Shown here in pieces: positions 31,505 to 49,007 of a stretch of DNA of 64,000 nt; the first letter of the stretch is position 1; the number at the start of each line of letters is the position of its first letter. The notes beneath the pieces were generated by a model that was given only the letters and a program-made list of their open reading frames with translations, did not search any database and was not told the origin of the DNA. The translations under genes were made by a program, and so were the position numbers. Source of the DNA: Companilactobacillus ginsenosidimutans. Lineage in GTDB: Bacteria > Bacillota > Bacilli > Lactobacillales > Lactobacillaceae. The stretch spans positions 1,550,001-1,614,000 of the forward strand of contig NZ_CP012034.1 of assembly GCF_001050475.1 (NCBI RefSeq), in the 5' to 3' direction.

Positions 31505-31735
31505 ATTTTGAAACAAAAAAACGCCCACTGTCACAATGACAAAGGACGTTCTCACGTGTTACCACCTTTATTCGAGCACCTCTCACGAGGCACTCCTCAA
31601 TAAGAAAAAATTCTTCACCCGATAACGGCGGCAACCGACGCATTAATGCATATCAATTTGCGAACCATATTCAGTAATCACTAATCGTCGATTCTCAACA
31701 AACACGACTCTCTGTGTAGTAGTAAATTACTTACT
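31505..31735 (-). promoter_or_regulatory. T-box riboswitch of the SsuABC-like operon
   Basis: On the minus strand the T-box core GGTGGTAACACG lies at 31566-31555. It is followed by ACGTCC and a terminator (AACGTCC...GGGCGTT plus T7) at about 31550-31514. The upstream part (31725-31570) has room for stem I, and a candidate methionine specifier ATG is at 31668-31666. The leader begins directly after the stop of the neighbouring cystathionine lyase/synthase gene, so readthrough from that gene also enters it. Confidence 0.85.
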
Positions 31736-32902
31736 CAAACGCAAAACTATTTTATTAGCTAAAAGTTGTTCAAATCCGCAAGCTAAATCGCTGATCAAGT
31801 CCTTGGGATCTTCGATTCCTACTGACAAACGTAAAAGCTGGTGACTAATACCTGCAGCTTTCAAATCTTTTTCTGACAATTCAGCGTGGCTCATCTTATA
31901 AGGAACCTCAACCAAACTCTCCACAGCACCAAGGCTTACAGCGAGTTGAATTATCCTCAGCCCCTCAACAAACTTTGTCGCATCAAAATCGTCACGAATT
32001 TCAAAGGAAACAATGCCACCATATCCGTTCGTTTCATCTTCAGCAATTTCGTGGTCGAGACTACCTTCGATTCCCGGATAATAAATTTTTGAAACCTCGG
32101 GACGACTCTGCAAGAACTTAACAATCTTTGCTGCGTTGCTCAAATGTCGGTCCATTCTGACCCCCAAAGTTTGAATCCCACGACGAACCAAATTGGAATC
32201 TTCTGGAGAAAGTACAGCACCAATACTATTTTGGTTAAAGTAAATTTTCTCAGCAATCTTTGGATCCTTGGCAACGGCCACTCCAGCGCAGACGTCGGAA
32301 TGTCCGGACAAGTATTTCGTTGCTGAATGAATAACTACGTCAGCCCCCAAATCCAAAGGTCTCTGCAAGTATGGTGTTAAGAAAGTGTTGTCAACAATTG
32401 TCAGCAAGCCATGCTGCTTGGCAATTTTAGAAACATCTTTAACGCTGGTTACTTTCAATAATGGATTGGTAAAACTTTCGAAGTAAATTGCCTTGGTATT
32501 AGGTTGAATTGCTTGTTCAACTTCTTCCAAATTCTGGGTATCTACTTCAGTAAATTTCAAATCCCAACGTTTGAAAAATTCGTTAACCAATCTGAATGTT
32601 CCACCATAAATTTCTTTACCAATGATGATGTGATCGCCGGCTTTAAAAATTGAAAGCACAGCGTGAATTGCCGCAATTCCTGAAGAAAAGGCAAATCCAC
32701 GGACGCCATTTTCAAGCAACGCAACTTGCTCCTCCAAATAATTTCTTGTTGGATTACCAGAGCGTTCGTAATCGTAATCAACTTTGGCACCAACTTTTGG
32801 ATAAATGTAAGTTGATGAATTATATATCGGCACATTAACAGCACCTGTATTATTGTCATGTTGTGGTTTTCCGTGAACCAACTTTGTATCAAATTCAGTC
32901 AT
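31727..32902 (-). CDS. Cystathionine gamma-synthase/lyase, PLP-dependent
   Basis: 391 residues, the usual length of the Cys/Met-metabolism PLP family. The start is ATG 32902 with AGGAGGA. Longer in-frame readings run back through the T-box and are not real. The PLP lysine is in HSATKYLSGHSD, with YERSGNPTRNYLE near the N-terminus and SSGIAAIHAVL for cofactor phosphate binding. Sequence alone does not separate cystathionine gamma-synthase (metB), gamma-lyase (mccB) and related activities. The T-box supports a methionine or cysteine role. Confidence 0.93.
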   Translation of the reverse strand: MTEFDTKLVHGKPQHDNNTGAVNVPIYNSSTYIYPKVGAKVDYDYERSGNPTRNYLEEQVALLENGVRGFAFSSGIAAIHAVLSIFKAGDHIIIGKEIYGGTFRLVNEFFKRWDLKFTEVDTQNLEEVEQAIQPNTKAIYFESFTNPLLKVTSVKDVSKIAKQHGLLTIVDNTFLTPYLQRPLDLGADVVIHSATKYLSGHSDVCAGVAVAKDPKIAEKIYFNQNSIGAVLSPEDSNLVRRGIQTLGVRMDRHLSNAAKIVKFLQSRPEVSKIYYPGIEGSLDHEIAEDETNGYGGIVSFEIRDDFDATKFVEGLRIIQLAVSLGAVESLVEVPYKMSHAELSEKDLKAAGISHQLLRLSVGIEDPKDLISDLACGFEQLLANKIVLRLSK

Positions 32903-32924: not shown

Positions 32925-33205
32925 AACAAAAAAGTCGCCCCCGCACAGAATTCATCTGTACAGGGACGACTATTAATCGTGTTACCACCCAAATTCGTGT
33001 TAATGTTGCCACTAACGCCTCTAAGGCACAAACATGCCCGGGATTTTATCGTGTTCCCCACGTACCTCAAGCTTGCACTATTGGTAATTGCTCGGAGCTC
33101 ATGTTCGGAAAACTTTTAAGTCCACTCTTTCACTAACAGTGGTCGCTATCCAACTCTAATAATTTTCTTACTCTTCTCGTCAACACAAGTTATTTAATTG
33201 ACACA
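32925..33205 (-). promoter_or_regulatory. T-box riboswitch of the cystathionine lyase/synthase gene
   Basis: The minus-strand core TGGGTGGTAACACG lies at 32991-32978, followed by CGTCCCTG and a terminator hairpin (GTCGTCCC...GGGGCGAC then T6) at about 32969-32928. In stem I a CCACT/AGTGG helix is visible, and the 3' strand reads GAACATGAGC, giving ATG (33102-33100) as candidate Met specifier. Uncharged tRNA would stabilise the antiterminator and allow transcription. Confidence 0.88.
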
Positions 33206-37563: not shown

Positions 37564-39414
37564 TTATCTTAATAATCTCATCGCATTAAAGATAACTACT
37601 AAAATACTTGCTTCGTGAACGAACATTCCACTTGCCATTTGGATTATTCCAACTAACAAACCTAATAGAAGTAAAGCAACTGTTCCAACAGCAATGGTGA
37701 TGTTTTCTTTAGTATTGGCAACTGTTTTCTTGGCTAAAATATATGCATGTGCAAGTGATTTGAAACTTGATTTTACCAAGACAATATCAGCTGTATCGAT
37801 GGCAACGTCAGTACCTGTTCCCATTCCGATACCAATATCAGCTGTGGCAAGTGATGGACTATCATTAATTCCGTCACCAACGAAGGCTACATTTCTACCT
37901 TCAGCTTTAAATTGTTTAACAAATTCAACTTTTTGTTCAGGTAGTAATTCAGCATGAACTTCATCGATTGGTAGTTTTTCTGCAACTCGTTGAGCAGCCA
38001 ATCTGTTATCACCAGTTAACATTACAATCTTTGTCATACCGGCTTTCTTAAGTGCTGTGAGTCCTTCAAATGCATCTGGTCTTAACTCATCATTAACACC
38101 AACAATTAATCTAATTTCTTTGTTAATTGCCATCATAACGATTGAATCTCCGTCGTCTAATCTGGCATCGATTGCTGCTCTGTTTTCTGGAGTAATTTCC
38201 ACTCCATTATTTTGCATCAATCTTTCATTACCAACTAAAATTTCTTGTGAATCGTCTGAACCAACCATTCCTTGGCCTTTTACAGTATCAAGCTCTGGGA
38301 TCTTTGGCAAATCTTTGATTCCTTCATTAGAAACGTATTTTGTAATGGCACGTCCTAATGGGTGATCTGAATTGCTTTCAACGGCTGATAAGATTGCCAT
38401 GTCAGCATTCTTGTCAGTTCCGAATGAATCCATTTTTGAAACAGTCATCTTACCAGTTGTTAATGTACCAGTTTTATCCAAAACAAGTGTATCAACGTGT
38501 GAAAAGCTATTTACCGCATTTCCACCTTTCATCAAAATACCGTTTTTAGCACCGTTACCAATTCCGGCAACGTTTGAAACTGGAGCACCAATGACCAAGG
38601 CACCAGGGCATCCAAGAACTAGGACAGTGATGGCTAACTCAAAATTCTGAGTAAAAATCCAAACTAGAATTCCGATTACTAAAACAGCGGGAGTGTAATA
38701 TGTAGCAAACTTATCAATAAATCTAGCAGCAGGAGACTGGCTATCTTGAGCCTCTTCAACGAGTTCAATAATTTTACCAAAAGTTGTATCTTCACCAACT
38801 GTCGAAGTTTCGACCGTGATTGTTCCATTATCAATTAGTGATCCAGCGAAAACTGAATCGCCGTCTTCTTTTTCAACTGGAGCAGACTCACCCGTAATAG
38901 AAGCTTCATTAACGTATCCAGTTCCGTCAACGATTTTTCCATCAACAGGAATTTGTCCACCGGGTTTAACCACAACGTGGTCTCCGGCGTCTAAGTCGTC
39001 AATATCTACAGTCGAAATATTTCCTTCATCATCTATTAATTCGGCTTGTGTTGGTGCCATTTGAGTCAAATCTTTAACAGAGGAACGTGTCTTTTGTAAT
39101 GTTCTCTGTTCCAAATAATTTCCGAATAGGAATAAGAAAGTAACAACGGCTGATTCTATATATTCACCGATTATGAAAGCTCCGATAACAGCGATTGTTA
39201 CTAACAGGTCAATACTGATGACCTTATTCTTTAAAGCTGAGAATGCGTGAATTGCGATCGGAATAGCACCTAAGATACTGGCAATAATCATTAAGATGTT
39301 AGCAACCAGTTCAATTTTAACTAAATATGTAAAGAACAAACTAGCAACAATTAAGATACCAATAACAGCAGTTAATTGATTTTGATGTTTTTGTAACCAT
39401 ATATTAAATTTCAT
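37564..39414 (-). CDS. P1B-type heavy-metal-translocating ATPase
   Basis: 616 residues, about eight helices, no N-terminal metal-binding domain. The actuator motif is ASITGESAPV, the phosphorylation site Asp313 in LDKTGTLTTG, and the HP motif SDHPLGRAI. MLTGDNRLAA and VGDGINDSPSLA mark the nucleotide and hinge regions. The helix-6 motif is CPGALVIG (Cys269) instead of the usual CPC, CPH or SPC, so the substrate metal is not clear. The gene is transcribed separately from the HMA operon but under a matching promoter box. Confidence 0.93.
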   Translation of the reverse strand: MKFNIWLQKHQNQLTAVIGILIVASLFFTYLVKIELVANILMIIASILGAIPIAIHAFSALKNKVISIDLLVTIAVIGAFIIGEYIESAVVTFLFLFGNYLEQRTLQKTRSSVKDLTQMAPTQAELIDDEGNISTVDIDDLDAGDHVVVKPGGQIPVDGKIVDGTGYVNEASITGESAPVEKEDGDSVFAGSLIDNGTITVETSTVGEDTTFGKIIELVEEAQDSQSPAARFIDKFATYYTPAVLVIGILVWIFTQNFELAITVLVLGCPGALVIGAPVSNVAGIGNGAKNGILMKGGNAVNSFSHVDTLVLDKTGTLTTGKMTVSKMDSFGTDKNADMAILSAVESNSDHPLGRAITKYVSNEGIKDLPKIPELDTVKGQGMVGSDDSQEILVGNERLMQNNGVEITPENRAAIDARLDDGDSIVMMAINKEIRLIVGVNDELRPDAFEGLTALKKAGMTKIVMLTGDNRLAAQRVAEKLPIDEVHAELLPEQKVEFVKQFKAEGRNVAFVGDGINDSPSLATADIGIGMGTGTDVAIDTADIVLVKSSFKSLAHAYILAKKTVANTKENITIAVGTVALLLLGLLVGIIQMASGMFVHEASILVVIFNAMRLLR

Positions 39415-39487: not shown

Positions 39488-39628
39488 GTTTTTAAATTAA
39501 TTTAGTAATTTTTTTTATAATTATCTTTCACATCTAAAAAGAGGCCGAAACCATTATAATAATAGGGATAAAACTAATTCGATCTAATTTTGGCACTCGA
39601 TATTTTCATGAAAATTTGTTTTGAGCTG

Positions 39629-39657
39629 TTGCAACCTCATAATTCCTGTGCTATTGT
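39629..39657 (+). promoter_or_regulatory. Promoter of the shikimate operon
   Basis: TTGCAA (39629-39634) and TATTGT (39652-39657) with a 17-base spacer and an extended TG before the -10. Transcription should begin near 39664, giving a leader of about 360 bases. Confidence 0.6.
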
Positions 39658-39704
39658 ATATGAAAATTAGAAATTAATTAAATTTATGAAAGCAGGACTA
39701 AGAA

Positions 39705-39776
39705 ATGAAATTGTCAGCTAAACAAAACACGTTAAGCATATCATCTTCATGGTATTACTACTTTATCAACGAGTGA
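39705..39776 (+). CDS. Aromatic leader peptide of the shikimate operon
   Basis: A 23-codon ORF with AGGA seven bases before the ATG. Residues 16-20 are Trp-Tyr-Tyr-Tyr-Phe, preceded by a run of Ser. Such a cluster of codons for the end products of the downstream operon is the hallmark of ribosome-mediated attenuation. The peptide-coding RNA (39725-39735 and 39758-39767) pairs with downstream segments (39826-39836 and 39812-39821), so a ribosome stalled at the aromatic codons would prevent this folding. It is short and lies outside usual ORF calls. Confidence 0.82.
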   Translation: MKLSAKQNTLSISSSWYYYFINE

Positions 39777-39861
39777 TCGCGACCTTCGGGTGTGTCGGTC
39801 ACGGCACATTCGATAAAGTAGCCTTTTAACGTGTTTACTTGATCGAGTGATTATAAAAATT

Positions 39862-39948
39862 ACACTTGGTTGAGTAGGACAATTTTTCATTGACTGTTTA
39901 TTAGCGGTCGACCAAGTGTATTCCAACACTTGATCGACCGCTTTTTTC
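39862..39948 (+). terminator. Attenuator: terminator and competing antiterminator
   Basis: Terminator arms 39904-39919 and 39926-39941 (GCGGTCGACCAAGTGT with a matching 3' arm) are followed by six T. An upstream segment ACACTTGGT (39862-39870) is exactly complementary to ACCAAGTGT (39911-39919) in the terminator's 5' arm, so the two structures exclude each other. This lies between the leader peptide and aroC. Confidence 0.8.
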
Positions 39949-39950
39949 AT

Positions 39951-39977
39951 ACCAAGAAGTGCTTCGCACTTCTTGGT
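39951..39977 (+). other. Hairpin after the attenuator
   Basis: ACCAAGAAGTGC and GCACTTCTTGGT form a perfect stem with a three-base loop between the attenuator and aroC. It is not followed by a T-run. It may protect the 5' end of the readthrough mRNA or assist folding. Confidence 0.55.
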
Positions 39978-40026
39978 AACAAAAGAATAAATATAAAAAA
40001 TACTAAAACCAAAGAGGGAATTTTCA

Positions 40027-41205
40027 ATGAAATACATGACAGCAGGAGAAAGCCACGGACCAGAGGAAATCGCAATTATAGAGGGTATCCCATCGGGATT
40101 ACACATTTCCGAAGAAGACATCAATAAAGAATTAGCTCGTCGCCAACATGGTTATGGACGTGGTCAACGCCAAGTCATTGAAAGCGACACAGTCAAATTT
40201 CTTTCTGGAGTTAGACATCAAGAAACACTGGGCTCGCCAATTACATTGAACGTTCACAACGACGATCATAACCACTGGGCCAGCATCATGGCACCTAACG
40301 ACGTTGAGACTGATGAAAATTCAGTTAGAAAAGTAATGAGACCTAGACCAGGACATGCCGACTTAGTCGGTGGCATGAAGTATCGCCACTTCAAGGATTT
40401 AAGAAATGTCTTGGAACGATCGTCAGCTAGAGAAACAGTCATGAGAGTGGCAGTTGGAGCAGTCGCAAAACAACTACTAAAAGAAATAGACATCGATGTT
40501 CATGGATTTGTTTTAAACATCGGTTCAGCAAAAACTAACTTAGATAAATTAGAGAATTTTAAGAAACTAGATGACATTCGCCAAGTATCTGAAAGTTTCC
40601 CAACTAGAACCTTAGATGAGGAAACCGACAAGAAAATGCAAGCAGTTATCGACCAAGCTAAAAAAGAAGGAAACACTGTTGGAGGCACTGTTCAAGTTTT
40701 CGCCACAGGAGTTCCTGCAGGACTTGGCTCTTATGTAACTGCCGACGACAAACTTGATGCAAAAATCGCCAGAGCAATTGTTGGAATCAATGCCTTTAAG
40801 GGAGTTGATTTCGGAGGCGGATTTAACAACGCTGAGAAATTTGGAAGTCAGGTAATGGACGAAATCTTTTGGTCAGAGGACAAAGGATTCTATCGAGGCT
40901 CAGACAACCTTGGTGGATTCGAAGGTGGAATGACAACCGGTGAAATGATTGCTGTAAGAGGCGTTGTCAAACCAATTCCTACCTTATATCGTCCAATGCA
41001 TTCCGTTGATATTGATACGCACGAAGAACACAAAGCAAGTATTGAAAGATCAGACACAACGGCAGTTACCGCCGCAGCCGTAATTGCCGAAAGTATGGTA
41101 GCAATCGAAATTGCCAAAGCAATCTTAGACAAGTTCGATAGCGACAACTTAGGAAGATTAAAAGAACAACTAAAAGCTTACAAAGAAGAAATCAAAGAAT
41201 TCTAA
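40027..41205 (+). CDS. aroC: Chorismate synthase
   Basis: 392 residues, normal length. It makes chorismate from EPSP with reduced FMN. Signature regions include the start MKYMTAGESHGP, RRQHGYGRGQR, GVRHQETLGSPI and RPRPGHADLVGGMKY, and DNLGGFEGGMTTGE near the end. The ATG follows AGAGGG. It is the first structural gene of the eight-gene aromatic operon, although it is the last step of the common pathway. Confidence 0.97.
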   Translation: MKYMTAGESHGPEEIAIIEGIPSGLHISEEDINKELARRQHGYGRGQRQVIESDTVKFLSGVRHQETLGSPITLNVHNDDHNHWASIMAPNDVETDENSVRKVMRPRPGHADLVGGMKYRHFKDLRNVLERSSARETVMRVAVGAVAKQLLKEIDIDVHGFVLNIGSAKTNLDKLENFKKLDDIRQVSESFPTRTLDEETDKKMQAVIDQAKKEGNTVGGTVQVFATGVPAGLGSYVTADDKLDAKIARAIVGINAFKGVDFGGGFNNAEKFGSQVMDEIFWSEDKGFYRGSDNLGGFEGGMTTGEMIAVRGVVKPIPTLYRPMHSVDIDTHEEHKASIERSDTTAVTAAAVIAESMVAIEIAKAILDKFDSDNLGRLKEQLKAYKEEIKEF

Positions 41206-41218
41206 AGGAGAAATTATT

Positions 41219-43189
41219 ATGGATGAAGATACGAGAAATATACATGCTTTAAAAATGTTAGCTGTTGAAGCTATCTCAAACGCAAATTCTGGTCACCCCG
41301 GAATCGTTCTCAGTGTGGCACCTATGCTTTACACATTAGCCACAAGACATTTAGTCGTTGATCCCGAAACTCCAGATTGGATTAATCGTGACAGATTAGT
41401 TCTCTCAGCTGGACATGGTTCAGCACTGCTATACAGTCACCTTCATCTATCAGGATTCGATTTAAGTATGGATGATTTGAAACGATTCAGACAACGTGGT
41501 TCACGTACACCAGGACATCCCGAATTTGGTGCAACACCTGGTGTTGATGCAACTACTGGACCAATTGGACAAGGCGTTGGTATGGCCGTTGGTATGGCTG
41601 TCGCTCAAAAGAGACTAGAGGCAAAATTTGGTAACTTGATGGATCACTTCACATTCGCAATTGTCGGTGATGGTGATTTAATGGAAGGAATTTCTCACGA
41701 AGCTGCTGAATTTGCTGGTATCAATAATCTAAATAAACTAGTCGTGTTATACGATTCAAACGATGTTTCATTGGATGGACCAACTAGTCGCTCATTCAAA
41801 ACTAATCAAAGAGATCGTTTCGCAGCATACGGCTTCGATACCTTCCTAGTTGAAGATGGTGATGACATCGACGCAATCGATGAAGCAATCACTAAAGCAA
41901 AGGCTTCACCAAATCCAGCATTCATCGAAATCAGAACTATCATTGGTGAAGGTGCTCCTAACCAAGGAACCAACAAAATTCACGGCGCCCCACTAAATGA
42001 CGATGCTCTACAAGTATTGGAAGACAATCTAGACTGGCATGAAGCTCCATTCACAGTTCCTGACGACGTAACAACTTCCTTCCGGGAAAAAGTTTTCGAC
42101 CGGGGCCATGCAGCACATGTCGCTTGGGGTAAAGAATTAGCTGAATCTTCACAAAAGGCTGAAATCCTCCACGACTTCGAAGTTCCTGTTTCAGTTGATG
42201 GAACAAAATTAACTACTTTCAAACCTGGCGAAAAAGATGCTGGTAGAAAAGTTGGTCACACTGCTATGAACGACATCGCCAAACAAGTTCCAAACTTAAT
42301 TGGTGGAGCTGCCGACCTTGCTTCCTCAACTAAAACAGAAATTGAAGATGGCGGAACTTTCTCAGCCGACAATCCAACTGGTAAAAACATCCCCTTCGGT
42401 GTTCACGAATTCGGAATGAGTACAATCATGAATGGTATCGCCCTACACGGTGGTTTGAAAGTCTTCGGTTCAACTTTCGCAGTTTTCTCAGATTACTTAA
42501 AAGCTGGTATTAGATTGAGTGCTTTGCAAAAACTTCCTGTTATCTACATCTTCACTCACGACTCAATCGCCGTTGGACAAGATGGACCAACTCATCAACC
42601 TATCGAGCAACTTTCTGGACTTCAAAGCATCCCTAACCTAAATGTTGTTAGACCAGGAAGTCCTAATGAAATTGTTTCTGCTTGGAAGATGGCTATCGAA
42701 TCAACTAATCGCCCAACCGTAATGTTCTTGAGCCGTCAAGACATTCAAGAATTGCCAGCTGACAACTCAGCTACATTGCTAGAAAAACGTGGTGGCTACG
42801 TTGCTAACTTTGAAAAAGGTAACTTGTCAGCAATCCTTCTTGCTACTGGTACCGAACTAGAATTAGCTAAAGCTGCACAAAAAGAACTAGAAAAAGACAA
42901 TATCTTTGCTAGAGTTGTATCTATGCCGGATCAAGCTAAGTTCTTGCAACAAGATATTTTATACCGTGAAAGTGTTCTTCCTAACAACCAACGCCGCCGC
43001 ATCGCTATCGAAATGGCTTCACCACTTGGCTGGGCAAATGTTGTTGGCCTTGATGGCAAGATCATTGGAACTGAAACTTTCGGTGAATCAGCTAAACCTG
43101 ATGAAGTTATCGAAGACTTCGACTTCACAGTTGATAACGTAGTTTCATCAGTTAAGAATTTACTCTTCAAAATGGAAAAGGTGGGATAA
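41219..43189 (+). CDS. tkt: Transketolase
   Basis: 656 residues. A thiamine-diphosphate enzyme that can supply erythrose 4-phosphate, a DAHP synthase substrate, which explains its place in this operon. Motifs: SGHPGIVLS, the TPP-binding GDGDLMEGISHEA with the later N, HGAPL, DLASSTKT, and FGVHEFGMSTIMNGIALHG. HDSIAVGQDGPTHQPIEQL carries the active-site histidines. An AAGGAG site precedes the ATG. A second transketolase or phosphoketolase elsewhere is likely in such hosts. Confidence 0.95.
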   Translation: MDEDTRNIHALKMLAVEAISNANSGHPGIVLSVAPMLYTLATRHLVVDPETPDWINRDRLVLSAGHGSALLYSHLHLSGFDLSMDDLKRFRQRGSRTPGHPEFGATPGVDATTGPIGQGVGMAVGMAVAQKRLEAKFGNLMDHFTFAIVGDGDLMEGISHEAAEFAGINNLNKLVVLYDSNDVSLDGPTSRSFKTNQRDRFAAYGFDTFLVEDGDDIDAIDEAITKAKASPNPAFIEIRTIIGEGAPNQGTNKIHGAPLNDDALQVLEDNLDWHEAPFTVPDDVTTSFREKVFDRGHAAHVAWGKELAESSQKAEILHDFEVPVSVDGTKLTTFKPGEKDAGRKVGHTAMNDIAKQVPNLIGGAADLASSTKTEIEDGGTFSADNPTGKNIPFGVHEFGMSTIMNGIALHGGLKVFGSTFAVFSDYLKAGIRLSALQKLPVIYIFTHDSIAVGQDGPTHQPIEQLSGLQSIPNLNVVRPGSPNEIVSAWKMAIESTNRPTVMFLSRQDIQELPADNSATLLEKRGGYVANFEKGNLSAILLATGTELELAKAAQKELEKDNIFARVVSMPDQAKFLQQDILYRESVLPNNQRRRIAIEMASPLGWANVVGLDGKIIGTETFGESAKPDEVIEDFDFTVDNVVSSVKNLLFKMEKVG

Positions 43190-43190
43190 C

Positions 43191-43994
43191 ATGCCAAAAG
43201 CTTTATACGGGTTAATCGGCTACCCTGCACTGCATTCTAAATCACCACGAATGCAAAATGCCGCTATGGAAAATTTAAATATTGATGCAATGTACAAAGC
43301 TTTTGAATTCGCACCTACAAAAATGGATGAAGAAATCAAGAAACTTAAATTACGTAACATCCAAGGTTTTAACGTCACCATGCCATATAAAAAGGCCATC
43401 ATCAACTACTTAGATGAGGTCGATCCAATTGCCGCAAAACTCCAATCAGTAAATACCGTTAAACGTATCAACGGCAAGTGGGTCGGAACTTCAACTGATG
43501 GTGCTGGCTTCTGGCACACAATTAAGAATGATCCTAAAAAAGTTGTTCTAATCGGAACTGGCGGTGCCGCACGAGCAATTATCGCTAGTAAACCTGACAA
43601 CATTGAATTAAAAGTTTTCAATCGCAACTCACAACGATTTTCTGGCCACGCTCAACAAATGCAAGAATTGTTTGGGATTGAACTTAAAAAACTATCTGAT
43701 ATTGAACAAGATCTAGGTGATACTGATTTAATCATCAATGCCACTAACGCTGGAATGCGTGACAATGAAAGCGTCCTTAGCCAAGAAAACTTTTTACAGG
43801 CAAAGAGTTCTTGTCACGTGATTGATATTATTTACCGAGATTTCCCAACTAGATTCATGGAAAACGCTAGAAATGCCGGATTGACTGCTGAAAATGGATT
43901 AAACATGCTAATAGCCCAAGGCGTGCTTAGCTTTCAAATCTGGTTTGGACAAACTGCACCTGAACAACTTATGACCGAAATGGTTCACAACTAA
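43191..43994 (+). CDS. aroE: Shikimate dehydrogenase
   Basis: 267 residues. It reduces 3-dehydroshikimate with NADPH. The substrate lobe has GYPALHSKSPRMQNAA (with the conserved Ser-x-Ser variant SKSP), the catalytic Lys in NVTMPYKKAI, and Asn/Asp in STDGAGFW. The NADP lobe has LIGTGGAARAI, and the C-terminus has GLNMLIAQGVLSFQIW. The start is one base after the tkt stop (ATAACATG), so translation is coupled. Confidence 0.94.
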   Translation: MPKALYGLIGYPALHSKSPRMQNAAMENLNIDAMYKAFEFAPTKMDEEIKKLKLRNIQGFNVTMPYKKAIINYLDEVDPIAAKLQSVNTVKRINGKWVGTSTDGAGFWHTIKNDPKKVVLIGTGGAARAIIASKPDNIELKVFNRNSQRFSGHAQQMQELFGIELKKLSDIEQDLGDTDLIINATNAGMRDNESVLSQENFLQAKSSCHVIDIIYRDFPTRFMENARNAGLTAENGLNMLIAQGVLSFQIWFGQTAPEQLMTEMVHN

Positions 43995-44018
43995 ACTAAA
44001 ACAAAAAGAGGAATAATA

Positions 44019-45011
44019 ATGATTATCGAATTAAAGAATGTAGAAGACGCTAACAAAGTAATGGAACAAGCTAATGCTAAGAAATTGGAACATGTTTTCC
44101 AACATAACAATCGTGTCGGATTTGTTGACCAAAATGCTTTAGGTGACGTACCTTTCGAAATTGATAATGTTGAACAAGTAATTACTGAGCACCCTGCCGC
44201 AATTCAAGCAAGTCGACTTTTCCACCCAGAAAATACTGTTATCAAAACTGAACATAGTGTAATTGGTGACGGAGGATTCGCATTAATCGCTGGTCCTGAC
44301 TCAATTGAATCAGCTGAACATGTTCTCTTAATGGGTAAAGATGTTCAAGAATCTGGTGCTACATTGCTACGTGGTGGTTCATTCAAACCTCGTACAAACC
44401 CATACAGTTTCCAAGGTCTTGGCGAAGAAGGACTCAAATGGCACCGTGAAGCTGCCGATAAATTAGGCATGGACATGGTTACTGAGATCATGGATACCAG
44501 AGACCTAGAAATGATCGACAAATACACTGATATGTTCCAAATTGGTACACGTAACATGCAAAACTTTGCTTTGTTAAAAGCTGTTGGTAAAACTAACAAA
44601 CCAGTTGTTCTAAAGCGTGGTATGTCAGCTACGATTGACGACTTATTGAACGCATCTGAATACATTGCTGCCGGTGGTAACCATCAAATTATCTTGATGG
44701 AACGTGGAATTAGAACTTTCGACAACAAATACACTCGTAATACATTCGATGTTTCTGCTATCCCTGTTTTGAAAGACTTAACTCACTACCCAGTAATCGG
44801 TGACCCATCTCACGCTGCTGGTGTTACTAAATTTGTTGAACCAATTGGTCTTGCTGCGGCCGCTGCTGGTGCTGACGGTTTGATGGTTGAAATCCACAAC
44901 CACCCTAAGGAAGCCTTCGTTGATGGTAAACAAGCTCTAACTCCAGCACAATTTGATCATCTAGCAAAAGTTGCTACAGACATCCACAATCTAGTGAAAG
45001 AAGAAAAATAA
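44019..45011 (+). CDS. DAHP synthase, type I-beta, with Asp in place of the metal-binding Cys
   Basis: 330 residues. It joins PEP and erythrose 4-phosphate, the first step of the shikimate pathway. The N-terminal about 75 residues form the ferredoxin-like regulatory domain of the Thermotoga-type enzyme, and a TIM barrel follows. The usual AGPCS motif reads AGPDSIES (Asp94), while the other expected metal ligands are present (His in GDPSHAAG, Glu in MVEIHNHP, Asp in VDGKQAL). The KPRTNPYSFQGLG loop is intact. It is coupled to aroB, which starts at the next base. Confidence 0.92.
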   Translation: MIIELKNVEDANKVMEQANAKKLEHVFQHNNRVGFVDQNALGDVPFEIDNVEQVITEHPAAIQASRLFHPENTVIKTEHSVIGDGGFALIAGPDSIESAEHVLLMGKDVQESGATLLRGGSFKPRTNPYSFQGLGEEGLKWHREAADKLGMDMVTEIMDTRDLEMIDKYTDMFQIGTRNMQNFALLKAVGKTNKPVVLKRGMSATIDDLLNASEYIAAGGNHQIILMERGIRTFDNKYTRNTFDVSAIPVLKDLTHYPVIGDPSHAAGVTKFVEPIGLAAAAAGADGLMVEIHNHPKEAFVDGKQALTPAQFDHLAKVATDIHNLVKEEK

Positions 45012-46082
45012 ATGATTACCGTAACTCTACCTACTAAAAAGTATGACGTGAAAATTGAAATGGGACTTGGCCGCAAAATTGGTGAGACCGTTAAAGAGGT
45101 TTGGTCAAAACGAAAAGTCATCGTGGTTACTGATGAACAAGTTGGCGACTTATACCTTCATACAACAATTAATGAATTGAAAAAAGCTGATTTTGACGTC
45201 ATAACCGCAACCGTACCCGTTGGCGAAAAATCGAAAAGTTTAAAGTTTGTCGGTGAAATCATCGAAACCATGGCAGACAACGGATTCACCCGCGGTGACG
45301 GTGTAATTGCACTAGGTGGTGGAGTTGTCGGTGATTTGTCCGGAACCGTCGCAAGTTTGTACATGCGTGGTATCGCCTTTATCCAAATTGCTACCTCATT
45401 GACTGCTATGGTTGACTCAAGCGTCGGTGGTAAAACCGCCGTTAATCTTGGCAAAGTCAAAAACATCATCGGATCCTTCTACCAACCAGATTTAGTTATC
45501 ATCGATCCAATCTTCTTGAATAGCTTATCTGAACGCAATCTTGTCGAAGGATACGGCGAAGTTGTTAAGTGCAGTGCCCTCGAAGGTGGCGACTTTTTCG
45601 ACCTGACTGGAAAAATTAATAAAGTGGACGATATTTTATCAAACGCACCCGATTTAATTGAACGGTCAGTCAATTTCAAAGCCAATGTGGTCATGAAAGA
45701 TGAAAAAGAAAGCAACCTCCGTCGAATTTTAAACTTCGGTCATACATTAGGACATGCCATCGAGCTTCTCGCTGACGGAAAATTAATGCATGGTGAAGCC
45801 GTTGCAATTGGTATGGTGACTATTTCCCAATGTTTCGAAAAAACTGGTGTCACACCCGCTTCTGTGACCTCAGCAATTCAAACAAGATTGGAATCTGTTG
45901 GATTACCAACATCATCTAATCTAATCGGTACAGATGCGTTTTTCGACCATCTCAAAAACGACAAAAAAAATGACCACGGAACATTGAATCTTGTAGCACT
46001 CAAAAACATCGGAGAACCTATCATTGTCCCAACTAAGTTAACTGAAATGCCTGAATTTGTTTCAGGACTAACAGTTAAATAA
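45012..46082 (+). CDS. aroB: 3-dehydroquinate synthase
   Basis: 356 residues. An NAD- and metal-dependent enzyme converting DAHP to 3-dehydroquinate. Motifs: GEKSKSLKFVGEI, the NAD loop GGGVVGDLSGTVASLYMRG, SSVGGKTAVN, the metal-site Glu in EGYGEVVKC, and the histidines of NFGHTLGHAIELL and LMHGEAVAIGM. The ATG immediately follows the DAHP synthase stop, and AAAGAAG inside that gene is the ribosome site. Confidence 0.96.
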   Translation: MITVTLPTKKYDVKIEMGLGRKIGETVKEVWSKRKVIVVTDEQVGDLYLHTTINELKKADFDVITATVPVGEKSKSLKFVGEIIETMADNGFTRGDGVIALGGGVVGDLSGTVASLYMRGIAFIQIATSLTAMVDSSVGGKTAVNLGKVKNIIGSFYQPDLVIIDPIFLNSLSERNLVEGYGEVVKCSALEGGDFFDLTGKINKVDDILSNAPDLIERSVNFKANVVMKDEKESNLRRILNFGHTLGHAIELLADGKLMHGEAVAIGMVTISQCFEKTGVTPASVTSAIQTRLESVGLPTSSNLIGTDAFFDHLKNDKKNDHGTLNLVALKNIGEPIIVPTKLTEMPEFVSGLTVK

Positions 46083-46103
46083 CCAAATCCTAAGGAGATC
46101 AAA

Positions 46104-47393
46104 ATGAAACAACTACCAACAACAGCCAATGGACTACACGGAAGTGTCGTAGTTCCCGGAGATAAAAGTATTTCACATCGTGCCATGATGTTTGGAGCTA
46201 TGGCAACCGGAACGACAAAAGTTTTACGACGTTTAGACTCTGCTGATGTCTCTAGTACGATTAGTGTTTTGAAATCCTTAGGAGCAAAAATAACCGAAAA
46301 AGATAACAACATCACCGAAGTTGTTGGAACCGGTGTTGCTGGTTTGAAAAGCCCCAATCAGCCATTAGACATGGGAAACTCGGGTACCTCTACCCGACTT
46401 TTAACCGGACTAATTACTGGTGCAGGTTTGAACGCCACGATTACCGGCGATAGCAGCCTTTCAACTCGTCCGATGGATCGAGTAACTGTACCTTTATCCG
46501 AAATCGGAGGTACTTTTACTTCCGACCATGGTCATTTGCCATTAACAATTGAGGCGTCAAAATTAGACACTGAGATTCATCAAACTTTGAAAGTAGGTTC
46601 AGCTCAAGTTAAAAGTGCCATCCTCTTGGCAGGCTTAGCTGCTGGATCAGATACATTCGTCACTGATTCCTTCCATACTCGAAATCATACCGAACAAATG
46701 CTTCCAAAATTTGGTGTAAAAGTTGAGACTTCTGGCGACACGATTCACATCCCCGCCAATCAAAAATTGCAGGCAACTGAAATCGAGGTCCCTGGTGATA
46801 TTTCATCAGCAGCCTACTGGCTAGTAGCCGGTCTCATTACTCCTAATAGTAAATTGACCATCAAAAACGTCGGGGTTAATCCCACTCGTATCGGCATCAT
46901 CAAAGTTCTTCAAGATATGGGTGGAGACATTACCATCGATACGAAAACTGATTTCGGTGAACCAATTGCTGATATTACCGTTAAAACTAGCCAACTTCAT
47001 GGAGTCGAAGTTGGCGGTGACATCATTCCTTCCTTAATTGATGAAATCCCCGTAATCGTTTTAGCTGCTACTCAAGCAACTGGCAAAACAGTTATCAAAG
47101 ATGCCGCCGAATTAAAAGTTAAGGAAACCAATCGAATTGACACGGTTCAAGAAGAATTAAATAAGCTAGGTGCAAATGTAATTCCAACAGACGACGGATT
47201 TATTATTGATGGTCCCGCAAAGCTTGCCAGTAGCGGAGTTCACGTTTCTGGACACGGAGATCACCGAATTGCGATGATGCTATCTATTGCAGCCTTGGTC
47301 ACCAATGGTACTATTACTTTAGATGATGATGAGAGTGTAAAAATCTCATATCCAACATTTTTCAATAACTTGGAAGGACTCGTAAAATCATGA
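46104..47393 (+). CDS. aroA: EPSP synthase (3-phosphoshikimate 1-carboxyvinyltransferase)
   Basis: 429 residues. PGDKSISHRAMM at about 15-26, the MGNSGTSTRLLTGL PEP/glyphosate loop, RPMDRV, and RIDTVQEELNKLGA and HGDHRIAMML near the C-terminus mark the family. The loop reads GNSGTSTR, where the glyphosate-tolerant class II pattern has GNAGTA, so the class should be checked before predicting sensitivity. The gene overlaps tyrA by 4 bases (ATGA). Confidence 0.96.
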   Translation: MKQLPTTANGLHGSVVVPGDKSISHRAMMFGAMATGTTKVLRRLDSADVSSTISVLKSLGAKITEKDNNITEVVGTGVAGLKSPNQPLDMGNSGTSTRLLTGLITGAGLNATITGDSSLSTRPMDRVTVPLSEIGGTFTSDHGHLPLTIEASKLDTEIHQTLKVGSAQVKSAILLAGLAAGSDTFVTDSFHTRNHTEQMLPKFGVKVETSGDTIHIPANQKLQATEIEVPGDISSAAYWLVAGLITPNSKLTIKNVGVNPTRIGIIKVLQDMGGDITIDTKTDFGEPIADITVKTSQLHGVEVGGDIIPSLIDEIPVIVLAATQATGKTVIKDAAELKVKETNRIDTVQEELNKLGANVIPTDDGFIIDGPAKLASSGVHVSGHGDHRIAMMLSIAALVTNGTITLDDDESVKISYPTFFNNLEGLVKS

Positions 47394-48232
47394 CAAAAGT
47401 AATCGTAGATGGCCTTGGCTCAATGGGAAGCTCATTAGCCGAAAAATTAGAAGACAATAACTATTATGTTGTTGGTATCGATGATAATCCCTCAACAACT
47501 AGAATTGCCCTCTCTGAAAATGTAATTAATGAAGTTGGTACTTGGAATGAAAAAACTGCTCAAGATGCTGACTTAATCATTTTGTGTACTCCAGTTTCTG
47601 TAATTATTAAGCAATTGGATGCATTGAAAAAAATGAATTTAAGCGAAAACACAATTGTTATGGATATCGGTTCGACTAAGGGTGAAATTCTCCAAGCAGC
47701 CAAAGGACTACCTAACTTCATTGGTGGACACCCAATGATTGGTACAGAGAGAAAAGGTATCGTCGGTCGTGATAAAAACATGTTCAAAGGCACTCCATTT
47801 TTCTTAATTGGTGACACTAGTTTGGCAGAGAAAGTTACAAACCTTTTGGCCCCATTGGAATCTGACTTCCAACAATTATCTGCTGATGAACACGACAATT
47901 TAACTGCTGCTATTAGTGCTTTGCCTCACCTTGTGGCTTATGCTCTGACTGATTCCGTTGATAAAATGCTTCCTGATAACAAATTGAACTGGCAAAATCG
48001 TGTTGCTGGTGGCTTTTCTGATACAACTAGAATTGCAAAATCTAACCCTAGTCTCTGGACTGACATTATTGTTTCTAATAAAGAACAAATTTTGGCTGGT
48101 TTGGATGACATGATTCAAACTCTTTCTGACTATCGTGAGGATCTCGCAAACGACGACAATGAAGGTTTAAATAAGAAAATATCTAAAGCTCAAGAAATTA
48201 GAAAAAAGGTAGGTGAGTCTGAAAATGGCTGA
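47390..48232 (+). CDS. tyrA: Prephenate dehydrogenase
   Basis: 280 residues. It oxidatively decarboxylates prephenate to 4-hydroxyphenylpyruvate, leading to tyrosine. A Rossmann start (VIVDGLGSMGSSLAEKL), LCTPVSV, DIGSTKGEI, and the substrate-binding GGHPMIGTERKGI with its conserved His are visible, then a helical dimerisation domain (LPHLVAYALTDS). There is no ACT domain, so no direct amino-acid feedback is expected. It overlaps the next gene by 8 bases. Confidence 0.93.
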   Translation: MTKVIVDGLGSMGSSLAEKLEDNNYYVVGIDDNPSTTRIALSENVINEVGTWNEKTAQDADLIILCTPVSVIIKQLDALKKMNLSENTIVMDIGSTKGEILQAAKGLPNFIGGHPMIGTERKGIVGRDKNMFKGTPFFLIGDTSLAEKVTNLLAPLESDFQQLSADEHDNLTAAISALPHLVAYALTDSVDKMLPDNKLNWQNRVAGGFSDTTRIAKSNPSLWTDIIVSNKEQILAGLDDMIQTLSDYREDLANDDNEGLNKKISKAQEIRKKVGESENG

Positions 48233-49007
48233 CACTGTTATGTTAATTGGCTTCATGGGCGCTGGCAAAACGACTGTTGGACAACAACTCGCCCAAGCTA
48301 CTAATCAGAAATTTTTAGATTTAGACGATGAATTCGTCAAAGAAACTGGATCTTCCATTAATGATTTTATGAACGCAAATGGTGAAAGTGGTTTCCGTAA
48401 AATGGAAACTAAGATTCTCGAAAATCGCCTTGCTAGTCCCGGTGTTATCAGTACTGGTGGTGGAATTATTGAATCTGACACTAACCGTCAAGTTATCAAA
48501 GACAGTGGTGCAACGGTTATTTTCTTGCAGGCCGATTTTGCAACTATTTTGCAACGTTTGTCTTCTGACACTGACCGTCCCCTACTCCGTCAACTTTCGA
48601 TGAAAGAATTGACTGACCGTTGGGAATTCCGCCAACCTCTTTATAATGAGGTGGCTAATGCTGTGATTATGACTAACGGTAAGAGTCCTAACAAAATCGT
48701 TCATGAACTAACTAATATGCTTTCTTTGGAAGATGATTCATTAGTCTCTTTAAGAAGTGAGATTGACAGTCTCGATCGTCAAATTCTAAAGCTGATTTCT
48801 GAGCGAGTTAATGTTGTCAAAGAGGTCGCTGCGGTTAAGAAGCTAAATGGCATTTCAGTGGTTCAACCTAATCGGATGGACCAAATCAGACAAGAACTCA
48901 AAGAAGAGTTCCAAACTGATCCTAATATTTCAGATGAGCTGATTGATGATTTAGTAAGTCTCCTTACTCAAACAGCAATAAATAAAGAACAAGATATAGT
49001 AAAGTAG
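48225..49007 (+). CDS. Bifunctional shikimate kinase-chorismate mutase fusion
   Basis: 260 residues, longer than the usual shikimate kinase (about 170). Residues 1-165 are the kinase: P-loop GFMGAGKTT at 9-17, Asp-x-Asp in LDLDDEF, substrate Arg in FRKME, GGG at 78-80, lid RDRP-like DTDRPLL. Residues about 172-250 are an AroQ-type helical chorismate mutase (SLRSEIDSLDRQILKLISER, then VKEVAAVKK). ATG 48225 follows AGGTGAG. It ends the operon and pairs two non-consecutive steps, one before and one after chorismate. Confidence 0.9.
   Translation: MADTVMLIGFMGAGKTTVGQQLAQATNQKFLDLDDEFVKETGSSINDFMNANGESGFRKMETKILENRLASPGVISTGGGIIESDTNRQVIKDSGATVIFLQADFATILQRLSSDTDRPLLRQLSMKELTDRWEFRQPLYNEVANAVIMTNGKSPNKIVHELTNMLSLEDDSLVSLRSEIDSLDRQILKLISERVNVVKEVAAVKKLNGISVVQPNRMDQIRQELKEEFQTDPNISDELIDDLVSLLTQTAINKEQDIVK

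What the first reader, a model, noticed from the sequence alone, without database searches (positions are those of the whole stretch)
39629..40026. Leader peptide with a Trp-Tyr-Tyr-Tyr-Phe run and attenuator controlling the whole shikimate operon
Between a consensus promoter and aroC there is a 23-codon ORF with its own ribosome site whose codons 16-20 encode Trp, three Tyr and Phe. Downstream lie a long hairpin that includes the peptide-coding RNA, a segment (39862-39870) complementary to the terminator's 5' arm, and a strong terminator (39904-39941 plus T6). This is the architecture of ribosome-mediated attenuation as in trp and phe operons of Proteobacteria. In Firmicutes aromatic genes are more often controlled by TRAP, T-boxes or repressors, so a triple-aromatic leader over the common pathway is unusual. 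How stalling switches the two structures I cannot resolve by eye.
Basis: partly seen in the sequence, partly recalled or inferred. Interest (0 to 1): 0.82.

Follow-up and report, generated by a model that had tools for sequence, protein, structure and literature searches.

The report
Ribosome-sensing switch before aromatic-amino-acid operon
In front of the genes that make the shared precursor of tryptophan, tyrosine and phenylalanine, this lactic acid bacterium carries a tiny leader gene rich in exactly those amino acids, whose translation very probably decides, through a chain of competing RNA hairpins, whether the genes are transcribed.

Summary
A 23-codon ORF (39705-39776; codons 16-20 Trp-Tyr-Tyr-Tyr-Phe) precedes a strong terminator and an eight-gene shikimate/tyrosine operon in a Companilactobacillus genome. 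I found the same RNA, always with an aromatic-rich leader peptide and before shikimate genes, in 32 Lactobacillaceae genomes (9 Companilactobacillus, 18 of 19 Leuconostoc, 5 others). No Rfam match reached a gathering score.

Proposed mechanism: a relay. S (at or just after the leader stop codon) pairs with I unless a ribosome sits on the stop codon. S:I frees B for C; B:C frees D for E; D:E blocks terminator E:F. A ribosome at the stop covers S, so I:B, C:D and E:F form. In 31 of 31 sequences the S:I hairpin is lost within 0-2 codons after the last aromatic codon. All six relay helices fit own-species partners better than cross-species ones (p 5e-5, phylogeny uncorrected).

Against: nothing is tested experimentally; equilibrium folding of the window leader predicts the terminator at every ribosome position tried; a kinetic heuristic gave the full relay for Companilactobacillus and Periweissella but never for Leuconostoc.

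Verdict: real ribosome-mediated attenuator; new variant of a known kind.

The parts
39629..39657 (+). promoter-like site, TTGCAA (39629-39634), 17 nt, TATTGT (39652-39657), TG upstream of the -10
   Evidence: sequence; same place in relatives; not listed by the consensus scan
39691..39697 (+). AGCAGGA, likely ribosome-binding site of the leader ORF
   Evidence: sequence; inference
39705..39776 (+). leader peptide ORF MKLSAKQNTLSISSSWYYYFINE*; regulatory codons 39750-39764
   Evidence: aromatic-rich leader in all 32 genomes with the RNA
39726..39736 (+). O5, early leader codons, pairs with O3 (39825-39835), 11 pairs
   Evidence: fold; own versus cross-species p 5e-5, 16 sequences; weak in Periweissella (-1.3 kcal/mol)
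39758..39767 (+). A, last aromatic codons, pairs with the 3' half of B (39812-39821) when no ribosome is there
   Evidence: fold; own versus cross-species p 5e-5
39773..39784 (+). S, overlaps the leader stop codon; pairs with I
   Evidence: fold; S:I hairpin in 31 of 31 sequences
39788..39802 (+). I; 39789-39802 pairs with S, 39788-39797 pairs with 39802-39811 of B
   Evidence: covariation of I:B
39802..39821 (+). B; 39807-39819 pairs with C (39837-39849), 12 of 13 pairs
   Evidence: B:C kept in 97.8% of cells of 26 distinct sequences
39825..39835 (+). O3, partner of O5
39836..39849 (+). C; pairs with B or with D
39863..39876 (+). D; pairs with C or, as antiterminator, with E (39863-39873 with 39908-39918)
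39904..39919 (+). E, 5' arm of the terminator
39926..39947 (+). F, 3' arm of the terminator (39926-39941) and T6 (39942-39947)
   Evidence: stem -24.0 kcal/mol
40027..41205 (+). aroC, chorismate synthase, first gene of the operon
   Evidence: PF01264, E 1.5e-113
41219..49007 (+). rest of the operon: tkt, aroE, DAHP synthase, aroB, aroA, tyrA, shikimate kinase fused to chorismate mutase
   Evidence: Pfam; ORFs overlapping or at most 24 bases apart

Best explanation
A ribosome-mediated transcription attenuator for the shikimate/tyrosine operon. Shown by sequence and comparison: an aromatic-rich leader ORF, a terminator before the first gene, and a chain of overlapping, mutually exclusive helices S:I, I:B, B:C, C:D, D:E, E:F kept in distant relatives. 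Inferred: (1) when charged Trp-, Tyr- or Phe-tRNA is short, the ribosome stalls on the aromatic codons. S, at or just after the stop codon, stays free and pairs with I as soon as I is made; A is covered, so B is free and pairs with C; D then pairs with E; the terminator E:F cannot form and the operon is transcribed. (2) With enough aromatic amino acids the ribosome reaches the stop codon and covers S; I pairs with B, C with D, E with F, and transcription stops. (3) Without translation, A:B and O5:O3 lock B in most sequences, again giving termination. In Leuconostoc the C:D hairpin is itself followed by a T-rich tract and may act as a first terminator ahead of E:F. Steps 1-3 are model, not experiment.
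For: 32 genomes carry the RNA with an aromatic leader, before shikimate genes. In Companilactobacillus the nine genomes with AroC are the nine with the RNA, of 36. In 31 of 31 sequences examined S:I is -8.0 to -22.5 kcal/mol with the ribosome on early aromatic codons, at most -2.6 with it on the stop, and falls below half within 0-2 codons after the last aromatic codon. Six relay helices: own-species pairing better than permuted, p 5e-5 each, 16 sequences; A:B and O5:O3 likewise. Both exclusive structures kept on 21 Leuconostoc-side sequences: 97.1% and 98.3% of cells paired against 22-43% when slid; wider set of 26 distinct sequences: I:B + C:D 99.1%, 43 double-change cells against 12.8 in shuffles; B:C 97.8%, 22 against 7.3. 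Kinetic heuristic: S:I formed before D in 27 of 32 stalled runs and 0 of 16 stop runs; E:F in 16 of 16 stop runs.
Against: No transcript or starvation data. Equilibrium folding of the window leader gives C:D and E:F at all ribosome positions tried, D:E zero. At equilibrium before D, S:I clearly wins at some aromatic codon in 12 of 31 sequences, is partial in 8 and absent in 11 (my grouping); with the ribosome on the stop, B:C is not zero in many. Full relay (B:C and D:E, no E:F) in only 10 of 32 stalled runs (window 2, L003 4, L061 4), never in the 16 Leuconostoc runs, where C:D displaced B:C; L005 gave it but not. Without a ribosome B:C still forms in 5 of 31. Some non-neighbour control pairs also pass (C:E p 0.00025, S:D p 0.0076; 6 of 8 do not); within 12 Leuconostoc-side sequences I:B is not significant (p 0.15). 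Phylogeny is not corrected. AT-side double changes on the Leuconostoc alignment are few: 2 pairs, 4 cells.
Confidence: 0.8

Rival explanations
1. A plain ribosome-mediated attenuator without the S-I-B relay: the stalled ribosome simply covers the aromatic-codon arm A, and B:C, D:E form by some simpler route (his-like six-segment logic, recalled).
For: A:B is present and specific to each species; the ribosome on aromatic codons covers A by position. B:C, C:D, D:E, E:F are all conserved.
Against: Without S:I the inner hairpin I:B holds B even when A is covered (B:C 0.0). S:I is present in 31 of 31 and lost exactly near the end of the aromatic run, which this reading leaves unexplained.
Confidence: 0.12
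2. A metabolite- or tRNA-sensing element (riboswitch or T-box-like) or a protein-bound leader (TRAP-like), the ORF being incidental.
For: The I:B hairpin is highly conserved in sequence; T-boxes abound in this genome.
Against: No Rfam family reached its gathering score in the window; at relaxed thresholds no T-box or known leader matched. The aromatic codons, their frame and their distance to S are kept in all genomes found. TRAP sites were not tested.
Confidence: 0.04
3. The leader peptide itself acts in trans, or the ORF only raises translation of the first gene, and the terminator is constitutive.
For: Leader ORFs with other roles are in print (titles and start of abstracts only: PMC7298713 and PMC4833913).
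Against: The N-terminal half of the peptide differs strongly between genera while the aromatic run, its codon position against S and all helices are kept.
Confidence: 0.03

Closest known systems
his and trp operon attenuators of Proteobacteria (architecture recalled; general logic in passages of PMC9413887)
   Same: leader peptide with runs of the codons for the operon's own products; alternating hairpins; terminator versus antiterminator
   Different: here a further segment S at or just after the leader stop codon must be left FREE by the stalled ribosome, and the ribosome on the stop codon is the off signal through covering S; seven relay segments plus two clamp helices; no sequence similarity reported by Rfam models
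uORFC-13-1 motif of Acholeplasma, upstream of aroF (PMC8632094, section 26 read)
   Same: uORF with Phe codon(s) before a terminator at a shikimate gene
   Different: described for Acholeplasma and environmental sequences only, at aroF only, at least one Phe codon; not compared here by sequence or model, so relation not tested
Leader-peptide attenuators of Firmicutes: his operons and hisS paralogues (passages, PMC9413887 and PMC2965389); leucine-rich attenuator peptide of Staphylococcus aureus (search listing and start of abstract, PMC5794164)
   Same: ribosome-sensing control by leader peptide in Gram-positive bacteria
   Different: other amino acids, other operons; none of the passages seen describes an aromatic leader in Lactobacillaceae
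T-box control of tyrosine biosynthesis in the Bacillus cereus group (passage, PMC2494555)
   Same: same pathway, amino-acid starvation, antitermination
   Different: senses tRNA directly; no T-box match here

Membership tests
Ribosome-mediated (leader-peptide) transcription attenuator | short ORF with a run of codons for the amino acids that the operon makes | tested here: met
   W-Y-Y-Y-F in the window; W, Y and F all present in 30 of the 31 sequences listed for analysis (L005 lacks W)
Ribosome-mediated (leader-peptide) transcription attenuator | intrinsic terminator between leader ORF and first structural gene | tested here: met
   39904-39947, -24.0 kcal/mol, T6; terminators located in the relatives, two of them (L092, L096) set by hand
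Ribosome-mediated (leader-peptide) transcription attenuator | conserved antiterminator exclusive with the terminator | tested here: met
   D:E, 95.2% of cells paired on 21 Leuconostoc-side sequences; own versus cross p 5e-5
Ribosome-mediated (leader-peptide) transcription attenuator | position of the stalled ribosome decides the fold | tested here: inconclusive
   S:I lost 0-2 codons after the aromatic run in 31 of 31; full relay in 10 of 32 simulated stalls; equilibrium folds of the window do not switch
Ribosome-mediated (leader-peptide) transcription attenuator | read-through rises on starvation for the cognate amino acid | not testable with these tools
   needs an experiment
T-box riboswitch (RF00230) | match to the covariance model | tested here: not met
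   no match in 39600-40030 at E <= 10 or in the window at gathering
Known Rfam leaders | match to any Rfam 15 family at gathering score | tested here: not met
   0 in the window; relatives L003, L005, L006, L023 only sub-threshold hits, L055, L096, L097, L098 none at E <= 0.5
uORFC-13-1 (Acholeplasma aroF) | match to its consensus | not tested
   only the text of section 26 was read
TRAP-bound leader | repeated GAG/UAG triplets | not tested
   -

The most novel reading that the evidence does not exclude
An unnamed family of Lactobacillaceae attenuators in which the ribosome is read out by occlusion of a segment at the leader stop codon: seven overlapping RNA segments (S, I, B, C, D, E, F) form a domino relay that carries the signal over about 150 nt to the terminator, the aromatic codons double as the 5' arm of a no-translation lock, and Leuconostoc uses the middle hairpin as an additional terminator.
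Probability: 0.6. Interest if true: 0.65.

Novelty: new variant of a known kind. Interest (0 to 1): 0.58.

Why it matters
It would add a common-pathway, three-amino-acid sensor of the leader-peptide type to a group where T-boxes are the usual device, give a name-worthy RNA family for the genus Leuconostoc and relatives used in food fermentation, and offer a natural example of a long RNA relay whose two exclusive states are both visible in sequence comparison. It also makes a clean prediction: moving or deleting S should uncouple stalling from read-through.

Tried and rejected
Equilibrium folding with ribosome masks did not show a switch in the window; this led to looking at partial transcripts, where S:I appeared. 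My first model (B freed simply by covering A) was dropped because I:B holds B. Weak model hits without an aromatic leader were dropped as chance: G014:C6 and G030:C39 (L059, L060; E 0.001 and 0.005) and G117:C1:216017 and G364:C388 (L100, L101; E 0.004). L085 (G364) was left out of the 31-sequence analysis as a near copy of L083; L002, L043, L058 and L088 were also left out of alignment A6 as near duplicates. Weissella (three genomes), Periweissella fabaria and an Enterococcus were checked upstream of their aro genes: no R3 match at E <= 1 and no short ORF with four aromatic residues in a row. Literature: searches listed no paper that I could see to describe an aromatic leader peptide in Lactobacillaceae; the library is open-access papers only, lists were cut at 15-25 entries, and I opened five papers (passages of four, passages and one section of PMC8632094). 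TRAP sites, internal promoters and the tree of the operon were not tested.

Full report
WHERE IT IS. The window is bases 1550001-1614000 of a 2.59 Mb single-contig genome. Upstream, on the other strand, lies a P-type ATPase gene (37564-39414); downstream the operon aroC (40027), tkt, aroE, DAHP synthase, aroB, aroA, tyrA and shikimate kinase fused to chorismate mutase (to 49007), by Pfam, with genes overlapping or at most 24 bases apart. No dehydroquinate dehydratase is among the eight proteins scanned.

THE OBSERVATION. The leader folds far better than shuffles (z -7.4). The promoter matches 8 of 12 consensus bases plus TG and was not listed by the scan, but is found at the same place in relatives.

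RELATIVES. AroC of the window found 34 loci. Six Companilactobacillus and Periweissella beninensis had a short aromatic ORF in the 500 bases before aroC (for L005 and L006 the run is YYLFY and YYWFY); genus search gave AroC in 9 of 36 genomes, adding L036 and L043. A covariance model of the core (I to D, no peptide; R1, 10 sequences) found 10 of 397 family genomes at E <= 0.01, four of them Leuconostoc with leader ...NNSYYYFWFM* before tkt-aroE-DAHP synthase-aroB-aroC (genes of relatives named by eye from translations). Model R2 (14 sequences) found 28 of 397 family genomes at E <= 0.001, in 6 of 40 genera, 18 of 19 Leuconostoc and 1 of 5 Periweissella genomes. With the nine Companilactobacillus this makes 32 genomes; every one has an aromatic leader. 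Model R3 (27 sequences) over 395 genomes of the order found only 7, all in this family, 3 of 80 genera; large searches use stricter filters, so absence is not proven. AroC itself is in 203 of 397 family genomes and 19 of 19 Leuconostoc, so the RNA belongs to some lineages, not to the pathway as such.

THE HELICES. Folding the RNA downstream of a stalled ribosome in pieces showed a hairpin not visible in the full fold: S (39773-39784, overlapping the stop codon) with I (39789-39802). Between ribosome leading edge (taken as 12 bases past the first base of the A-site codon, a recalled figure) and the end of I, all 31 sequences form S:I, -8.0 to -22.5 kcal/mol on early aromatic codons, and at most -2.6 with the A site on the stop codon; it falls below half within 0-2 codons after the last aromatic codon. 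Sequence differs: GUGAUCG:CGGUCAC-type in the window, CUGGUCG:CGAUCAG in L005, CCAUG:CAUGG in Periweissella, AACCG-U-CGC:GCG-U-CGGUU in Leuconostoc.

COVARIATION. For 16 representative sequences, own-species duplexes beat permuted ones for S:I, I:B, B:C, C:D, D:E, E:F (p 5e-5 each; own better than mean cross in 13, 13, 15, 16, 12 and 16 of 16). Of eight non-neighbour controls six show nothing, but C:E (p 0.00025) and S:D (p 0.0076) do. On 12 Leuconostoc-side sequences alone p is 0.004, 0.15, 0.034, 0.030, 0.035 and 5e-5. A:B and O5:O3 also pass on 16 sequences. On the alignment of 21 Leuconostoc-side sequences the antitermination set (S:I, B:C, D:E) is paired in 97.1% of cells and the termination set (I:B, C:D, E:F) in 98.3%, slid controls 22-43%; double changes are 2 pairs/4 cells and 13 pairs/35 cells. 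On 26 distinct sequences of both sides I:B + C:D reach 99.1% with 43 double-change cells (shuffles 12.8), B:C 97.8% with 22 (shuffles 7.3). These controls do not correct for relatedness.

DYNAMICS, FOR AND AGAINST. Equilibrium folds of the whole window leader give C:D and E:F at every ribosome position tried. On partial transcripts ending just past C, S:I with B:C dominates at some aromatic codon in 12 of 31 sequences, partly in 8, not in 11; S:I is zero on the stop codon in all 31, though B:C is then not zero in many (grouping mine). A home-made Kinwalker-like heuristic on eight sequences: before D is made, S:I holds in 27 of 32 stalled runs and 0 of 16 stop runs; at the end E:F forms in 16 of 16 stop runs, the full relay with D:E in 10 of 32 stalled runs (window 2 of 4, L003 4 of 4, Periweissella 4 of 4, others none), E:F in 6 of 32, neither in 16. 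In all 16 Leuconostoc stalled runs C:D replaced B:C. Two earlier runs differed in detail: L003, L005 and L061 switched fully, window, L055 and L083 did not; the window did in 1 of 9 stalled settings. The heuristic ignores polymerase lag and contact with the ribosome. Without a ribosome, B is locked (B:C at most 0.8 expected pairs) in 26 of 31 and free in 5 (L003, L005, L006, L043, L061), so the no-translation state is not uniform.

LEUCONOSTOC VARIANT. There the C:D hairpin runs into a T-rich tract such as GACTTTTTATTTT, so it may terminate by itself; B:C would then be its antiterminator. This is inference from sequence.

KNOWN OR NEW. No Rfam family reached gathering (relaxed searches). Closest in print, from what I saw: a Phe-coding uORF before aroF in Acholeplasma (PMC8632094), his leader attenuators in Firmicutes (PMC9413887, PMC2965389). 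The logic resembles trp/his attenuation (recalled) with an added stop-codon segment. I file it as a ribosome-mediated attenuator by anatomy, with the defining starvation response untested, and as a new variant.

Noticed in passing
window 31540-31752 and 32960-33193 (-): Two T-box matches below the cut-off (72.6 and 68.2 bits, cut-off 93) among 28 in this genome; genes they precede were not examined.
   Followed up: no
window 39950-39978: Perfect 13-bp hairpin with a 3-base loop right after the terminator, inside the aroC 5' UTR, no T tract; its core occurs once in the window, something similar in L003, absent from the aligned L001, L002, L004, L036.
   Followed up: partly
window 48213-49007: Shikimate kinase fused to a type II chorismate mutase (PF01202 and PF01817).
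   Followed up: no
window 40027-41205 and relatives: AroC occurs in only 9 of 36 Companilactobacillus genomes and is 74-77% identical to that of Leuconostoc but mostly 53-66% to that of many other family genera listed; the operon and its RNA may have been acquired together by transfer. No tree was made.
   Followed up: partly
G089, G119, G168 (genus g19, Periweissella): Two AroC copies per genome, none with the RNA by model R2.
   Followed up: no
L124 4445-4550 (-): Rfam trpB motif (RF04312, 61.9 bits) in an Enterococcus stretch, ahead of a transporter-like gene, not of the aro genes.
   Followed up: no
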